From assembly GCF_001561915.1 (NCBI RefSeq), contig NZ_LSKU01000001.1, forward strand, positions 2,349,493-2,413,492: a stretch of DNA of 64,000 nucleotides, written 5' to 3'. This DNA comes from Tepidibacillus decaturensis. Lineage in GTDB: Bacteria; Bacillota; Bacilli; Tepidibacillales; Tepidibacillaceae. The notes beneath the pieces are model-generated. The model searched no databases. It was not told the DNA's origin and was given only the letters and a program-made list of their open reading frames with translations. Shown here in pieces: positions 43,123 through 53,073 of this stretch; within the stretch, counting starts at the first letter, position 1, and every line of letters starts with the position of its first letter. The position numbers and the translations under genes are program-made.

Positions 43123-43961
43123 TCAGGGATTGCTGTCTGACCCTCCAGTCTCTTTTTTCCCTATCCGTTCTTTCAGCACACTAATCACTTCCTCGTCAGT
43201 GATATAGCTTCCTTCTAACCCGAGTTCATGGGCAATTTGAGTAACAGATGGTTGTTCTAAGTGTGCTTTTTGGAGTTTTTCTTTTTGGGCAAAAATATCT
43301 TTACTTGATCCATCCATGAGTACGTTTCCTTGGTTGAAGACAATGATCCGTTCAAAAATTTCCGCGGCAAAATCCATGTCATGAAGAATACATAGGACGA
43401 TCTTTCCTTGCTCATGAAGTTCTCGAATGATTTTTTTAATATTTGTTTTCCTGCATGATCTTGCCCCATAGTGGGTTCATCGAATATGACTACATCCGTG
43501 TCCATTGCGAGTATGGATGCAATGGTAATCATTTTTCTCTCAGATAAGCTTAAATCATAAGGATTCGTTTCTATGTATTGTTCTAGATGAACCTTTTTAA
43601 GGGCTTGAAAAGCATTATTTTTTGCTTGCAGTTCATCCTGTCCAATATTTAAGGGGCCAAACATCACTTCACTAATGACCGTGTTCTTAAAAATTTGATC
43701 ATTTGGATTTTGGAATACTAAACCGATATGTTTTGCAAGACTAGCCACTGTATAGTCCTTCGTATTTCTCCCGTCAAAAATGATTTCACCTTCTGTAGGT
43801 TTTAATAAGCCTTTGAGCAATTTTACAAAAGTAGACTTTCCAGCACCATTTTGTCCAATGATTGCTGTAGGTTCGCTACCTAGATGTAAATTGATTCCTT
43901 TTAAAACCTCATTTTCAGGTGTATAGGAAAAATGAAGATTCTTAATTTCTAGTGATTTCAT
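43123..43961 (-). pseudogene. ECF transporter ATPase (second subunit), frameshifted at an A7 run
   Basis: One ABC ATPase of about 279 residues split in two frames. The first (from ATG 43961) has Walker A (IGQNGAGKSTFVKLLKG), Q-loop (VFQNPNDQ), signature LSLSERKMITIAS (LSGGQ is degenerate) and Walker B DVVIFDEPTMGQD. After KQILKK it runs out of homology. Adding one A to the A7 run near 43434 gives KKIIRELHEQGKIVLCILHD with the switch His, joining the second frame (43123-43377 and upstream) that continues MDFAAEIFERIIVFNQG. It overlaps the first ATPase gene by 4 bases (ATGA). It pairs with that ATPase as the EcfA/A' heterodimer. As in the Panacea gene, the break is at A_AAA_AAA. Confidence 0.87.
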
Positions 43962-47727: not shown

Positions 47728-48746
47728 AATTCTGATCACTAGCGTTGCATTAATTAAATCTGATGATTCAAAATAATAGCAATCTTCAAAAATTATATGT
47801 CCATACAACAAAAAAATCCTTTACAATGGAAGTACAGGTGATTCCTGTCCAAATCCAATAGTAAAGGAATTCATGTTATGGACAAGAATACACTAATTTC
47901 GTCATTTGGTAAATGGGTTTCACCCATAAATTTTAAAAAAATTTTTGAACATGTTGAAAATGGTAAACAAGATTACTACATCAAGAAACTTACAACAGAG
48001 GCTTTTATTAAACTTCTGCTTTTTGCTCAGCTGCATGAAACCGAGAGTTTACAAGCCATGAGTGATGCACTACTTAATGTGTTTGACCGCGGGTATGTTG
48101 ACTATGAACGTTTTAATCGAATGACAGATGATGGTTACTTCTTTGTATCAAGGCTAAAGAAAAATGCCGTCATACGAGAAATCGAACGTTTTACTCTTCC
48201 CGAAGGTAGCAAGGTTTTAGCTGATAAAATGGTCTACATCGGGACACCACAAAAACGGGCAGAAAATATCTTTCGCCTTCTTGAGGTGATCGATACAAAG
48301 GGGAATAACCTTCGGTTAATCACGAACCGATTTGATTTGAGCGCCGAAGAAATCAGTGAAATTTACCGATCACGCTGGACAATTGAACTATTCTTTTAAT
48401 GGCTCAAGCAGCATGTTGAGATCAAACATTTTTATGGAATGAGTGAAACGGCAATACAAAATCAAATCTACTTAGCACTAATTACTTATTGCTTAAATGT
48501 TCTCGTGCAACTTGAGATGAAGAGTAAGAAATCTTTACTTCAAATCACTCGCTGGTTAAAGGCTGCGATTTGTAAGCCAGCATATATTTGGTTACGTCGG
48601 TTTGACGAACGATCTAGCACATAAATAAAAGCATGATTCCTGTCACTCCAGTATTTAAATGTATATATTTACCAAATGGACAGAATCACCTTTTCTTTTT
48701 TACTGAAAATTTTGACTATATTTATGCAACGCTAGTGAATTCTGAT
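47728..48746 (+). mobile_element. IS4-type insertion element, defective, with 9-bp target duplication
   Basis: Ends CACTAGCGTTGCAT (47737-47750) and ATGCAACGCTAGTG (48724-48737) are exact inverted repeats. AATTCTGAT immediately precedes (47728-47736) and follows (48738-48746) them, a perfect 9-base direct duplication. The body is 1001 bases and carries a broken transposase. Coordinates here include the duplication. A 9-12 base duplication and a ~14-base perfect terminal repeat fit the IS4 family. Confidence 0.92.
47878..48624 (+). pseudogene. IS4-family transposase, internally deleted and with a stop codon
   Basis: The N-terminus (MDKNTLISSFGKWVSPINF) and C-terminal half (NVFDRGYVDYERFNRM, RFVTRLK-like FVSRLKKNAV, YRSRWTIELFF) are those of an IS4 DDE transposase, but about 140 residues between LHETESLQAMSDA and LLNVFDRG, including the first catalytic Asp, are missing. 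A TAA at 48397-48399 interrupts the Y-(2)-R-(3)-E-(6)-K region, where FFKWLKQH would be expected; the frame continues to 48624. It cannot be an active enzyme. Confidence 0.92.
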
Positions 48747-48863: not shown

Positions 48864-49030
48864 AGCAAAAAAGACCTACTACCTGCAGGTCTTTTTTCTT
48901 AGTGATTATTTATATACATCACCACGATTGTCAATTGTCAGAATATATACTCCTCCCACGACACAAATTCTGAGTTATTCTTTAGTTGGCGTTCTTCTTC
49001 TTCACTTAAATCGATTTCTTCTGGTTCCAT
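48864..49030. repeat. Direct repeat A flanking the ECF/nucleoside locus (right copy)
   Basis: Partner of 42918-43084, in the same orientation, with roughly a dozen single-base differences. It carries the AAAGACCTAC / GCAGGTCTTT hairpin at 48868-48892. Spacing between copies is 5946 bases. Confidence 0.85.
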
Positions 49031-49162
49031 TTCTAATATTTCATCTCAATCTGGACATTTATGAGTTAGGGACAGAAATTTCAGGTAATCATAAGCTGAT
49101 TTTTTAGCAGATTCAGGAAGGTTTCGGATCAATTTAACTAATTCATCATTATTAATTGTCAT
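48906..49162 (-). pseudogene. Antitoxin-like gene with in-frame TGA, joined to a RelE toxin tail
   Basis: From ATG 49162 the frame encodes MTINNDELVKLIRNLPESAK..., a small VapB/DUF2281-type antitoxin-like protein of 74 residues ending at SWEEYIF (stop 48938-48940). A TGA at codon 39 (after THKCPD) sits where Trp is usual, so the gene is broken. Overlapping its end in another frame, 48950-48906 encodes VYILTIDNRGDVYK-stop, which resembles a RelE/ParE C-terminus. The toxin body was deleted. The left copy shares exactly the same junction. Confidence 0.65.
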
Positions 49163-49316: not shown

Positions 49317-49346
49317 CCATGTTCATGGTCTTATTTCTTTATGCCA

Positions 49347-49555
49347 TGAGCGATGAATACCACCAATCGTTAACTGAATTTCGTGTTGGGCACTAGTCAG
49401 ATGTGGCGATTGACAGTATAGGGTTCGTTATTGCATTAGTAAGCTATTGGTTGTTTCAACTAAAGGTGAAAGGAGAATATCAAAATGGATTTAAAAATGC
49501 TCACGTTATTTTTGTTTCATGCTCTAGCTTCGGCAACGCAGGCATCTTCGAATAA
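49347..49555 (+). other. Degenerate coding remnants, 48625-49555 gap
   Basis: ATGAGCGATGAATACCACCA is repeated from 42849 but the frame soon stops. After it, one frame reads a hydrophobic stretch (FVIALVSYWLFQLKVKG) to a stop at 49556-49558, and another starts at ATG 49485 after an AAAGGAG site with a signal-like MDLKMLTLFLFHALASATQA before running antisense into the protease gene. None looks like an intact gene. The region looks like the worn end of an older gene cut by insertion of the protease/ATPase pair. Confidence 0.35.
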
Positions 49556-51832
49556 TTATTTCACTGGAACCATTACTTCATTTCTATTTTTAATTTCAAT
49601 TGGTTCCAAAATTCTAAACTCATTTAAGATGTCTTCATATAAATTACCAGCGTATTTAGGAATATTGATGGTTACCACAACTGCATAATCAATTCTATTA
49701 CTACTACCATTCCTACCCATTCCATGTAATACTAAAAATGGTCTCTCTAAGGAGTTAACTTTCATACGTTTCCATTTTTTGACGACAGTATCCCATTTTA
49801 AGTCATTTCTTCTTGCAAGCTCAGTTTGATAACGTTCAGGTGAATTAGTAGCTGGTAAACTACTTTTTTTATACCCTCCATTTAACAGCTCTTGAATTTT
49901 AATTTTATCCAGATCAATATTTAGGATTTTACTCTTATTGCCTTTTGTAAATTTATATTTCTTACTATGTGGATAGAAAGTATCCTCTATTGCCGATTCT
50001 GTATAATCTTCAATATGTAATGGGTTTACTTTTGATAAAGTTACAATTGTCCAAGAAAAATGTACATCTGATGAAATAGATATATTTAAAGGTAATGGTA
50101 TTGGAAGTTTTGCTAAACCAGTAGGGTTCATCGAATTAGAATAGATAATGTGTACGCGATTTCGATCGCACCTTAGGATATCGTCTACGCTTTGATCAAT
50201 TATTCCATAACCAATTTGTTCATCTACTAGATTTGGGTTTTTAGCAGAATGTATTAATAGCGCTCTAGCAACTAATGGAGTGAAACGATTACATCTTCCT
50301 ATTATTTCTGCTGCTTTACTTGCAATTATCGGAGCTGAAAAGCTCGTACCAGCTGAAAGTAGTTTTGTTTTATCATCTGCAAAATTTAATAAATGAATAG
50401 GGAATCGACTATCTCCACCAAACGCACAAAGATCAGGTTTTACCTTGCACCCTTCTCTACCCCCACCTACGCAGCTATAACTTGCTCTTTTCCAATTTGT
50501 AGACTCGTAATCATAAGTATAAGCACCTACTCCAAGTCCATTAACTAGGTCTGCAGGGGATTGTATTCTATTATAAGGCGAAGGTCTTTCTCCATCATTT
50601 CCAACTGCAACCACAAAAAGTTTCCGATAGTTCCATGCCAATGTATCTAATGAATATGTAAATCTAGAAATTTCATCATCGAATATTGGACCAACAGGAC
50701 CAAATGATAAATTATAAACATCAATATCATGTCTAGTCGGGACTACTTCTTCAATTAAATCAATAGCTTCATATAGATCTAAATCTGTTGGGTCACTCAA
50801 TGGTAATACGCGAAAACTTTCCACAAAAACAACTGGATCTTCAATCCGGTTATTTGCCTCATATTGATTTAAATCTCCATATAGGGCTACACCAGCTACA
50901 GCTGTACCATGTTCTATACCTTCTTTAATTGCGACAGTATTTACAGATTTATTCTCTTTACTATATTTTGTTAAAAAAGGATGCGACGAATTAATCCCAC
51001 CATCGAAAATCCCCAATTTTATTTGGGAAATCGCTTTTCCTATAGGGGGTAATAATAAATTGGTATCATTCGTTGAACCTCTTAGAGAAGGGAAAAAATT
51101 TAATCTTAAAGGATGAACAGTTCTCAAAGGATTAAAATCAGCAATATTTTTTATAACTTTAATATCCACCACTGCGCTAACAAACGTCGGCCCATCATCA
51201 TACTCCCTTATTTTTATTGTGTTCTCTTGTACCCCTTGGTTTAACAGGTTTTCCTTAAATTTCCCAACCATTACATCATTTTCTTCATTATATGGGTGGA
51301 GTACAAATTCAACGGCCCCTTCCCTCCAATCATCATCAAAGCCCTGAATTACTTCGCTAACATCCAATAAGGAAAATTCTTCAATTTTCCTTATATCATT
51401 TTTAAAACTATCCGACAACAAAGCCTCGTCAGATGAAAGAATTTTATCAAATGAAGATAAACCCTCTTGATCAATTTTAACAAAGTGCATTTTACTATAC
51501 TTCAATTCATCGTCTTTTTGAAATACCCATCTTCTTGATCCGATATTTTGCAATTGAGTTTGTCTAAATAGGGTTTCAGGTGTATATGATTTTGCAAGAA
51601 ACTTTTCATTTAGCCTTAAAGTAATAACAACTTCTTTCATTCTTTTTTCTTCTGGAATTTTTTCTATTCGCAACTTTACCTCTTCTACTTGTTTTTTAAC
51701 TCTATTTTTTGCTTCATTGTAACTTCTTGGATATACCGTTTCTCCTCCCCCATATGATTTCTGAATAGGTTCAATCATCTTTTCACCATTGCCTATTATC
51801 GGCATATAATCCTGTTTTGACCTGTCAGACAT
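49556..51832 (-). CDS. ietS: S8 subtilase of an IetAS-type defence pair
   Basis: A 758-residue protease (start ATG 51832, after GGGGGGAG). The N-terminal 240 residues are of unassigned type. The subtilase domain follows with the triad in order: LGIFDGG (Asp 277), EHGTAVAG (His 308) and AGTSFSAP (Ser 497), plus VVAVGNDG for the oxyanion Asn. There is no signal peptide, so it is cytosolic. The C-terminal 180 residues form another domain. It starts 22 bases after the AAA ATPase gene. This pairing, subtilase with a central AAA ATPase, is that of IetAS, first described as a Ti-plasmid instability system and later reported as anti-phage. The symbol is by architecture. Confidence 0.82.
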   Translation of the reverse strand: MSDRSKQDYMPIIGNGEKMIEPIQKSYGGGETVYPRSYNEAKNRVKKQVEEVKLRIEKIPEEKRMKEVVITLRLNEKFLAKSYTPETLFRQTQLQNIGSRRWVFQKDDELKYSKMHFVKIDQEGLSSFDKILSSDEALLSDSFKNDIRKIEEFSLLDVSEVIQGFDDDWREGAVEFVLHPYNEENDVMVGKFKENLLNQGVQENTIKIREYDDGPTFVSAVVDIKVIKNIADFNPLRTVHPLRLNFFPSLRGSTNDTNLLLPPIGKAISQIKLGIFDGGINSSHPFLTKYSKENKSVNTVAIKEGIEHGTAVAGVALYGDLNQYEANNRIEDPVVFVESFRVLPLSDPTDLDLYEAIDLIEEVVPTRHDIDVYNLSFGPVGPIFDDEISRFTYSLDTLAWNYRKLFVVAVGNDGERPSPYNRIQSPADLVNGLGVGAYTYDYESTNWKRASYSCVGGGREGCKVKPDLCAFGGDSRFPIHLLNFADDKTKLLSAGTSFSAPIIASKAAEIIGRCNRFTPLVARALLIHSAKNPNLVDEQIGYGIIDQSVDDILRCDRNRVHIIYSNSMNPTGLAKLPIPLPLNISISSDVHFSWTIVTLSKVNPLHIEDYTESAIEDTFYPHSKKYKFTKGNKSKILNIDLDKIKIQELLNGGYKKSSLPATNSPERYQTELARRNDLKWDTVVKKWKRMKVNSLERPFLVLHGMGRNGSSNRIDYAVVVTINIPKYAGNLYEDILNEFRILEPIEIKNRNEVMVPVK

Positions 51833-51854
51833 AACATTCTCCCCCCTTAACACT

Positions 51855-52964
51855 TTATTTAATACTTGACTTTAGATGATGATTCACTGTTGAAACACTA
51901 ATACCTAATAAATTAGCAATCTTCGCTTGGGATATTTTCCCTTCATAAATTTCCTTTAATGCAAAAATTAAAATTTTATTAAAGTTTGAACGGTCATCAT
52001 TATTCACTTCTCTTAATTTTTCAATTAGTACCTTTATGGGATCGGAACCATTAATGATAGTTTGACGAAGTACATATTGACTGATTTGTTTAATATCCGA
52101 CGGACTAACATGATTAAACGCTTTAGCTATCGCTTTTATAATTATATCTTGAATTTCTATAGTTCCTTTGTTCATATTTAATTTCCATAACTTAAATCTT
52201 TGTTCTTCACCTGGTAATGGTATTTCAATTTTTAAATCAAATCTTCTCCAAATTGCCTTATCCAAGAATTCATGATGATTGGTTGCCCCAATTATAATTG
52301 AATGAGTTGGCCATTCTTCTAATTCCTTTAGTAGCACATTAACAATTCTTTTTAATTCCCCTAAGTCAGTTGGATCATCTCTTCTTTTTGCCACTGCATC
52401 GAATTCATCAAGGAGAAGTACCGATGGATTGTTTTTCCCATAATCTAGAACTTTCTTCAGGTTCTGCCCGGTTTTACCTAAATAGCTTGATATTGCAGAC
52501 GATAAATCTAACGTTATTAAAGGCAATGATAAACTATGGGCTATAAACTTGGATAATAAAGTTTTCCCAACTCCTGGTGGTCCATAAAACAAAATACTAT
52601 TAGGTGGTTTTAAATCATTAGCTATTAATTTTGAAATTTGTTTTCTTTCCGCTAAAAATTGTTTAATTAATCGTTCTACATGGTTATCTAAAACAACAAT
52701 TTCATCAAATGTTGTTGAGTCGTTAACATTTACTAATGACATAAAAGATTCATTGTCAACCGGGGGAGGTGTAATACCTATTGACCTAGTGAGCGGCGCC
52801 CCAGCGCTATATGTAGAAATAATTTCTGCTAATTCCATCGATAATTTTGGGTCATCCTCTTTTATTTTTCTAATTATTGAAAGAGCAGACATTTCAACAG
52901 TTCTTATATCTCCTTCTAAAGAAGCCCGAATCAAGGATGGTAATTGTTTATAAACCGCATTCAT
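51855..52964 (-). CDS. ietA: AAA ATPase of an IetAS-type defence pair, with C-terminal HTH
   Basis: A 369-residue AAA+ ATPase of the FtsH/Cdc48-like class. Walker A is FYGPPGVGKT (126-135), Walker B SVLLLDEFDA (181-190), sensor region IIIGATNHHEF and second-region RRFD arginine motif. The last 40 residues form a small HTH (ISQAKIANLLGISVSTVNHH), unusual in this role. The start is ATG 52964 with AAAGGTG 7 bases upstream; the ATG 18 bases earlier has no ribosome site. It precedes the subtilase by 22 bases, so the pair forms an operon. ATP-driven control of the protease is the expected model; how infection is sensed is unknown. Confidence 0.85.
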   Translation of the reverse strand: MNAVYKQLPSLIRASLEGDIRTVEMSALSIIRKIKEDDPKLSMELAEIISTYSAGAPLTRSIGITPPPVDNESFMSLVNVNDSTTFDEIVVLDNHVERLIKQFLAERKQISKLIANDLKPPNSILFYGPPGVGKTLLSKFIAHSLSLPLITLDLSSAISSYLGKTGQNLKKVLDYGKNNPSVLLLDEFDAVAKRRDDPTDLGELKRIVNVLLKELEEWPTHSIIIGATNHHEFLDKAIWRRFDLKIEIPLPGEEQRFKLWKLNMNKGTIEIQDIIIKAIAKAFNHVSPSDIKQISQYVLRQTIINGSDPIKVLIEKLREVNNDDRSNFNKILIFALKEIYEGKISQAKIANLLGISVSTVNHHLKSSIK

Positions 52965-52990
52965 TCGATACACACCTTTCATATTTACTT

Positions 52991-53073
52991 ATCGAATAAT
53001 AATATTATAAATATTACCACCTTTTTTAGTCAATATTATTCGAATATAACAGCAAACATAACTTTATCGAATG
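52991..53073. promoter_or_regulatory. Inverted-repeat operator candidate upstream of ietA
   Basis: TCGAATAATAATATT (52992-53006) and AATATTATTCGA (53032-53043) face each other 25 bases apart around an AT-rich promoter, with a third ATCGAAT copy at 53067-53073. The positions flank where -10/-35 boxes would be. A regulator, possibly the ATPase's own HTH, may bind. Confidence 0.5.

What the first reader, a model, noticed from the sequence alone, without database searches (positions are those of the whole stretch)
49556..52964. IetAS-like anti-phage pair next to decayed mobile and toxin-antitoxin DNA
AAA ATPase plus cytosolic subtilase with complete motifs, in an island bordered by scars and broken ORFs. 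The N-terminal region of the protease and its C-terminal domain are not of a known type.
Basis: partly seen in the sequence, partly recalled or inferred. Interest (0 to 1): 0.65.

Follow-up and report, generated by a model that had tools for sequence, protein, structure and literature searches.

The report
Phage-borne IetAS pair, apparently self-regulating
The gene pair is a genuine IetAS toxin-antitoxin/anti-phage system whose nearest relatives ride on temperate bacteriophages, and its ATPase half appears to be its own transcriptional switch: four matched DNA boxes flank its promoter, and their letters change in step with the DNA-reading helix at the end of the ATPase.

Summary
ietA (52964-51855, -) and ietS (51832-49556, -) are intact, carry all catalytic motifs and match PADLOC IetA (6e-95) and IetS (1e-61). 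They lie in a scarred stretch: an IS4-family remnant with terminal repeats and a 9-bp target duplication, plus VanZ and antitoxin-like fragments. The nearest relatives (68-72% identity) are in Paenibacillus larvae phages and an IMG/VR prophage contig. The C-terminal part of IetS is not a new type (KP-43-like); the stretch just before the catalytic domain resembles subtilisin propeptides, and residues 1-165 remain unassigned.

New here: IetA ends in a helix-turn-helix that pTiC58 IetA lacks. Its promoter (TTGACT-18-TATAAT) is flanked by four ATTCGAT boxes, two inverted pairs 75 bp apart; the last overlaps the start codon. Across seven divergent loci 25/31 box columns are invariant versus 2/105 elsewhere. 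The same geometry with other letters precedes relatives with other recognition helices, and HTH-less loci showed no arrays. Many HTH-bearing loci in other clades show no clear array either. Inference: IetA is an autorepressing antitoxin for the IetS protease. Binding, toxicity and phage protection were not tested.

The parts
51855..52964 (-). ietA: AAA ATPase (369 aa) of the IetA family; N-terminal helices 2-53, AAA domain about 68-322, C-terminal HTH about 325-368
   Evidence: PADLOC IetA 6e-95; Pfam AAA 4e-31 and HTH_24 6e-6; model pLDDT 89.7, AAA part Z 21.7 to Vps4; start by homology with L055/L067
51855..51992 (-). C-terminal helix-turn-helix of IetA (recognition helix SVSTVNHHLK)
   Evidence: Pfam HTH_24 6e-6 at 344-371 of the 375-aa reading; three helices 325-339, 346-353, 357-368 in the model; absent from pTiC58 IetA
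49556..51832 (-). ietS: S8 subtilase (758 aa) of the IetS family; propeptide-like segment about 170-241, catalytic domain 258-555, C-terminal beta domain to about 722
   Evidence: PADLOC IetS 1e-61; Pfam Peptidase_S8 1e-28; D277, H308, N412, S497 invariant in 59 homologues; model pLDDT 91.3; VIA-align
53065..53072 (-). operator box 1, ATTCGATA (-108 from the ietA ATG)
53038..53045 (.). operator box 2, ATTCGAAT (-81)
53028..53033 (-). -35 hexamer TTGACT of the ietAS promoter
   Evidence: 11 of 12 consensus match with 18-nt spacer; same place in relatives
53004..53009 (-). -10 hexamer TATAAT of the ietAS promoter
52990..52997 (-). operator box 3, ATTCGATA (-33, about at the expected transcription start)
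52963..52970 (-). operator box 4, TATCGAAT (-6 to +2, overlaps the ietA start codon)
47728..48746 (+). IS4-family insertion remnant: 14-bp terminal repeats, 9-bp target duplication AATTCTGAT, transposase interrupted after 48399
   Evidence: flank of the system, not a working part
49320..49470 (+). VanZ C-terminal fragment with an internal stop (flanking debris)
   Evidence: Pfam VanZ 2e-8
48950..49162 (-). antitoxin-like (DUF2281-like) fragment with an internal stop (flanking debris; weak match)
   Evidence: Pfam E 0.006, below the curated cut-off

Best explanation
This is an IetAS module of the branch whose IetA carries a C-terminal HTH, in a lineage carried by temperate phages of Bacilli. 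IetS is a subtilase that acts as the toxin/effector and IetA is the AAA antitoxin that holds it in check (inferred from characterised homologues). The operon is read from one near-consensus promoter flanked by four ATTCGAT boxes in two inverted pairs: one pair upstream of the -35, one at the transcription start and the start codon. IetA multimers bind these boxes through the C-terminal HTH and repress the operon (inferred from footprint, geometry and helix-box correspondence; binding not shown). When IetA is lost, titrated or disabled during infection, or when the element is lost, repression and inhibition of IetS lapse together, and the protease harms the cell or the invader.
For: Membership. 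Phage carriage: IetS 71.5% identical in phages Callan, Dash and Yyerffej, in Callan between lysis genes and integrase; 68% in prophage contig L055 beside an integrase and an ImmA-like peptidase; 74 IMG/VR loci in all. Boxes: the pair ATTCGA-N22-24-TCGAAT occurs twice in the window against 0 in shuffles, and 3 times in the 2.96-Mb genome, two of them here. In seven divergent loci 25/31 box columns are invariant against 2/105 other columns. Same geometry with other letters: TGTTCGAT (STVHHYL, STVQHHL), GTATTATA (STIQYYL). Motif-by-helix-class matrix diagonal, e.g. ATTCGA 4.00 vs 0.07 expected in its own class and about 0 in others. Reverse search with the operator pattern alone leads to ietA in G000 and 2 further Bacilli genomes and in 4 viral contigs. 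HTH-less IetA, pTiC58 included, have no array: 0/12 at p<=0.05 vs 35/91 HTH-bearing and 15/120 background upstreams. TA function of homologues: PMC5006074, PMC8562856.
Against: No binding, toxicity or protection has been measured for this pair. By the generic repeat test 56 of 91 HTH-bearing loci do not reach p 0.05, so the array is clear only in some clades. The held-out viral set supports it only weakly (combined p 0.011; not different from HTH-less loci by rank test, p 0.22). The motifs in the matrix were chosen on the same loci. The Asp/Glu and Ser/Ala correlation inside the RDTIR clade is strong when related loci are counted freely (p 8e-5) but not when tree-corrected (3 of 5 pairs at best, none contrary, p 0.25). 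NCBIfam's IteA/IteS equivalog cut-offs are not reached (267/510, 141/900).
Confidence: 0.75

Rival explanations
1. IetA is not an antitoxin but an unfoldase that feeds phage proteins to IetS, as ClpX feeds ClpP; the HTH serves to find phage DNA or replication complexes, and the promoter boxes are only the self-regulatory by-product.
For: The AAA part resembles unfoldases (Vps4, PAN, Rpt, FtsH). All intact loci found keep both genes together.
Against: In characterised homologues the ATPase neutralises the protease and the protease alone is toxic (PMC5006074, PMC8562856). IetS carries a propeptide-like segment next to the catalytic domain, as autonomous subtilases do.
Confidence: 0.2
2. The four boxes are bound by a host or phage regulator, not by IetA; the HTH of IetA does something else.
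For: Not excluded without binding data. An ImmA-like peptidase stands beside ietA in L055 and beside the decayed ietA fragment. A similar ATTCGA array stands in front of an unrelated gene in G138 (L157).
Against: The boxes travel with ietA through Bacilli hosts, phages and a planctomycete (L081), no other DNA-binding gene was seen to accompany all of them, the letters differ with the IetA recognition helix, and HTH-less IetA lack arrays.
Confidence: 0.15
3. A plain addiction (toxin-antitoxin) module that stabilises the phage or island, with no anti-phage role.
For: ietAS stabilises pTiC58 and SgiAT stabilises SGI1 (PMC5006074). Prophage and plasmid carriage fits.
Against: NCBIfam and PADLOC list IetAS/IteAS as anti-phage on the basis of earlier plating assays (known from memory: Gao et al. 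2020, not read here). The two roles do not exclude each other.
Confidence: 0.25
4. A relic: the pair sits in decaying DNA and is no longer used.
For: Flanking IS remnant and broken genes; a second ietA in the same genome is already decayed.
Against: Both frames are intact with invariant residues kept, and all four boxes, the promoter and a Shine-Dalgarno-like sequence before ietS are intact.
Confidence: 0.1

Closest known systems
IetAS of Paenibacillus larvae phages Callan, Dash, Yyerffej (annotated only as ATPase/'RecA-like protease' and S8 peptidase)
   Same: IetS 71.5% and IetA 74% identical, same gene order, same recognition helix STVNHHLK, same four ATTCGA boxes at -109, -80, -34, -4
   Different: Carried in a phage genome; the window copy is chromosomal with no phage genes seen beside it
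ietAS of Agrobacterium plasmid pTiC58 (Yamamoto et al. 2009, as cited in PMC5006074) and SgiAT of SGI1 (PMC5006074)
   Same: AAA ATPase plus S8 protease in one operon; profile-profile match of the IetA AAA parts E 5e-70; PADLOC names pTiC58's pair IetA/IetS
   Different: pTiC58 IetA (328 aa) ends before the HTH and its upstream shows no box array; its IetS is only remotely similar. SgiA was not examined
NCBIfam IteAS (NF042959, NF042956), anti-phage equivalog
   Same: Best NCBIfam hit for both proteins; the IteA model of 367 positions also spans the C-terminal end
   Different: Scores far below the equivalog cut-offs (267/510 and 141/900)
Mycoplasma TA132/3 (PMC8562856)
   Same: AAA ATPase (353 aa) antitoxin and subtilisin-like protease (757 aa) toxin
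   Different: Not compared by sequence here; HTH and promoter boxes not examined
KP-43 / SubHal and Tk-SP subtilases (PDB 1wmd, 5fax, 3afg)
   Same: Catalytic plus C-terminal beta domain (Z about 28) and propeptide-catalytic arrangement
   Different: These are stand-alone proteases without an ATPase partner; only fold is shared

Membership tests
IetAS (PADLOC) | IetA and IetS profile matches | tested here: met
   6e-95 and 1e-61
IetAS (PADLOC) | ATPase and protease genes adjacent, ATPase first, same strand | tested here: met
   22-bp gap here; same order in all intact homologous loci
IetAS (PADLOC) | Intact Walker A/B and Asp-His-Ser triad | tested here: met
IetAS (as toxin-antitoxin) | Protease toxic, ATPase neutralises | not testable with these tools
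   Shown for homologues only (PMC5006074, PMC8562856)
IetAS (as defence system) | Protects against phage | not testable with these tools
   No assay; the one Pf phage with IetAS gave no lysogens to test (PMC11878078)
NCBIfam IteAS equivalog | Score above curated cut-off | tested here: not met
   IteA 267/510, IteS 141/900
HTH-bearing, box-flanked IetAS branch (defined here) | C-terminal HTH on IetA | tested here: met
   Pfam HTH_24 above its cut-off (26.1 vs 21.9 bits); model
HTH-bearing, box-flanked IetAS branch (defined here) | Repeated operator boxes around the ietA promoter | tested here: met
HTH-bearing, box-flanked IetAS branch (defined here) | IetA binds the boxes | not testable with these tools
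   Needs EMSA/footprint
Housekeeping AAA (FtsH, PAN, CdvC, Cdc48) | NCBIfam cut-offs | tested here: not met
   All far below cut-off, e.g. PAN 112/500, CdvC 96/650
Type VII secretion mycosin | NCBIfam cut-off | tested here: not met
   31/278.75
Subtilase of KP-43 architecture (fold only) | S8 domain followed by C-terminal beta domain | tested here: met
   Z 28.6, 365 aligned residues, rmsd 3.1

The most novel reading that the evidence does not exclude
The DNA-bound IetA assembly on the four boxes is itself the sensor: IetA's ATPase cycle couples operator release to release of IetS, so that an invading phage or plasmid that titrates or remodels IetA, for example by bringing in the same boxes, both derepresses the operon and frees the protease. 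Helix-box co-change would then set which elements exclude each other.
Probability: 0.15. Interest if true: 0.8.

Novelty: new variant of a known kind. Interest (0 to 1): 0.52.

Why it matters
How IetAS-type systems are controlled is open in the papers read: the SgiAT authors wrote that the mechanisms of regulation remain to be identified (PMC5006074), and a later test of LexA at that promoter found no SOS regulation in Salmonella (PMC9927553). A conserved, helix-matched operator array on the HTH-bearing branch gives a direct, cheap test of self-regulation and separates two IetA architectures that databases currently merge. It also shows that a phage lineage carries the module, which bears on phage-phage exclusion.

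Tried and rejected
(1) 'Unknown domains' in IetS: rejected for the C-terminal part and for about 170-260 after fold comparison; residues 1-165 remain unassigned and were not folded alone. (2) pTiC58 as a positive control for the boxes: no array there, because its IetA has no HTH; used as a negative control instead. (3) Tree-corrected test of helix/box co-change inside the RDTIR clade: underpowered. (4) Crude 6-mer repeat count: swamped by A/T-rich words, replaced by a composition-corrected statistic. (5) Boxes as an RNA structure: unlikely, since boxes 1 and 2 lie upstream of the promoter; not tested further. (6) Empty-site comparison with the four family members held: the neighbouring transporter gene is not conserved there, so no insertion boundary could be drawn. 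(8) Yamamoto 2009 is not held in the library; its content is taken from citing papers. (9) Lysogens of the IetAS-carrying Pf phage: none were obtained by those authors, so no protection data.

Full report
What is there. ietA (52964-51855) and ietS (51832-49556) are intact neighbours on the minus strand. PADLOC assigns them to IetA (6e-95) and IetS (1e-61); Pfam finds AAA, HTH_24 and Peptidase_S8. NCBIfam's best names are IteA and IteS, but both scores lie well under the equivalog cut-offs (267/510 and 141/900), so this is a distant member of the wider family, not the equivalog. In 59-row alignments the Walker A lysine, Walker B DE, sensor N and arginines of IetA are invariant, as are D277, H308, N412 and S497 of IetS.

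Surroundings. Downstream lies an IS4-family remnant with 14-bp terminal repeats, a 9-bp target duplication and an interrupted transposase, then a VanZ fragment and a possible antitoxin fragment, each with a stop. Some 24 kb away in the same genome is a decayed ietA fragment: 31 residues, 68% identical, with stops. The genome therefore has held, and lost, a second copy.

Relatives. The closest sequences are in temperate phages: P. larvae phages Callan, Dash and Yyerffej (IetS 71.5%) and an IMG/VR contig with an integrase and an ImmA-like peptidase (68%). In Callan the pair sits between lysis genes and the integrase. More distant pairs are on plasmids, in a P2-like phage, in a filamentous Pf phage and in 74 IMG/VR loci. 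All intact loci keep ietA directly before ietS.

Structure. The IetS model (pLDDT 91.3) aligns over 269-722 with KP-43 and SubHal (Z 28, rmsd about 3.1) and from residue 170 with unprocessed pro-subtilisin E. So the C-terminal domain has a known fold, and the stretch before the catalytic domain is propeptide-like. Residues 1-165 were barely tested. The IetA model (pLDDT 89.7) has an AAA domain like Vps4, PAN and FtsH (Z 20-22) followed by the helices of the HTH.

The promoter. Reading the window beside L055 showed the same short word repeated before both genes, and a scan placed four ATTCGA boxes at -108, -80, -33 and -5 in the window, in L055 and in the P. larvae phages. They form two inverted pairs ATTCGA-N22-24-TCGAAT. 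That pair occurs twice in the window and never in 100 shuffles; in the whole genome it occurs three times, two of them here. Between the pairs lies TTGACT-18-TATAAT. The first pair is upstream of the -35; the third box is at the expected start of transcription and the fourth covers the start codon. Aligning seven loci from phage, prophage and chromosomes, 25 of 31 box columns are invariant, 5 of 12 promoter-hexamer columns, and 2 of 105 others (naive Fisher p 2e-19, sequences not independent).

Who binds the boxes? Four arguments point to IetA. First, geometry is kept while letters change with the IetA recognition helix: ATTCGAT with STVNHHL, TGTTCGAT with STVHHYL or STVQHHL (the latter in a planctomycete MAG), GTATTATA with STIQYYL. 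Second, over 91 loci each helix class is enriched for its own word and not for those of the others: ATTCGA 4.00 vs 0.07 expected, TGGAC 1.49 vs 0.26, TGGAAGA 2.40 vs 0.04, TGGTAA 2.06 vs 0.09. These words were chosen on the same loci; in 26 held-out viral loci the rules held for TGGTAA (1.75 vs 0.10) and TGGAC (0.89 vs 0.28). Third, a search with the operator pattern alone finds ietA: of the places in 399 Bacilli genomes, those in G000, G159 and G285 are at ietA and four are not; of 54 viral contigs four are at ietA. Most operator-only viral hits are thus chance matches to a short pattern. Fourth, IetA proteins without an HTH, including that of pTiC58, have no array: 0 of 12 at p<=0.05, against 35 of 91 HTH-bearing and 15 of 120 other intergenic upstreams from the same loci (HTH-bearing vs background p 2e-5).

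Limits. More than half of the HTH-bearing loci do not pass the generic test, and the held-out set as a whole is weak (combined p 0.011; rank test against HTH-less loci p 0.22). Within the RDTIR clade, Glu in the helix goes with TGGAA in 5 of 5 loci and Ser-Arg-Asp mostly with TGGAC (Fisher p 8e-5), but the tree-corrected test has only five pairs and p 0.25. The claim is firm for the window's own clade and its neighbours, suggestive for the rest.

How it most likely works. Shown by others for homologues: the protease is toxic and the ATPase neutralises it (PMC5006074 for SgiAT and, by citation, pTiC58; PMC8562856 for mycoplasmas). Shown here: an HTH on IetA, the conserved box array, and the correspondence of helix and boxes. 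Inferred: IetA represses its own operon, so loss of IetA both raises IetS synthesis and frees IetS. Unknown: the trigger, the IetS substrates and whether phages are stopped. The papers read state that regulation of SgiAT is unresolved (PMC5006074), that LexA does not control it in Salmonella (PMC9927553) and that the IetAS mechanism is unknown (PMC11878078, PMC9958689).

Verdict. A real IetAS module, a new member of a known family. The self-operator architecture of the HTH-bearing branch is, as far as the library searched shows, undescribed; that makes it a new variant with a simple decisive test.

Noticed in passing
G000 C1:2426573-2426665 (L057:6574-6666): Decayed ietA fragment (31 aa, 68% identical, with stops) beside an XRE-type regulator and an IrrE/M78 peptidase gene: a second, lost IetAS in the same genome.
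   Followed up: partly
L061:236-2668 and L062:238-2664: Multiubiquitin-domain and ThiF genes directly upstream of IetAS on Bradyrhizobium and Methylovirgula plasmids; possibly a ubiquitin-like conjugation defence next to IetAS.
   Followed up: no
many loci of the RDTIR clade, e.g. L060, L130, L134, L142: The last box is the start of the gene itself (ATGGAC or ATGGAA), so the second codon of IetA (Asp or Glu) seems set by the operator.
   Followed up: partly
window 43123-43961: Energy-coupling-factor ATPase gene apparently split by a frameshift: the C-terminal part continues in another frame.
   Followed up: no
L157 (genome G138 C5:118185-118272): A similar array of four ATTCGA-type sites in front of a gene that is not ietA, with its own longer repeat ATTCGATnACCA..AAATTAGATA.
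   Followed up: no
L216:22031-22624: In pTiC58 the HTH-less ietA is preceded by a DUF6088 gene, which might supply regulation in trans.
   Followed up: no
L115:2250-2400 and relatives (Vibrio, Marinomonas): TGGTAA sites repeated at about 21-bp steps before ietA, an iteron-like layout different from the two inverted pairs of the Bacilli clade.
   Followed up: partly
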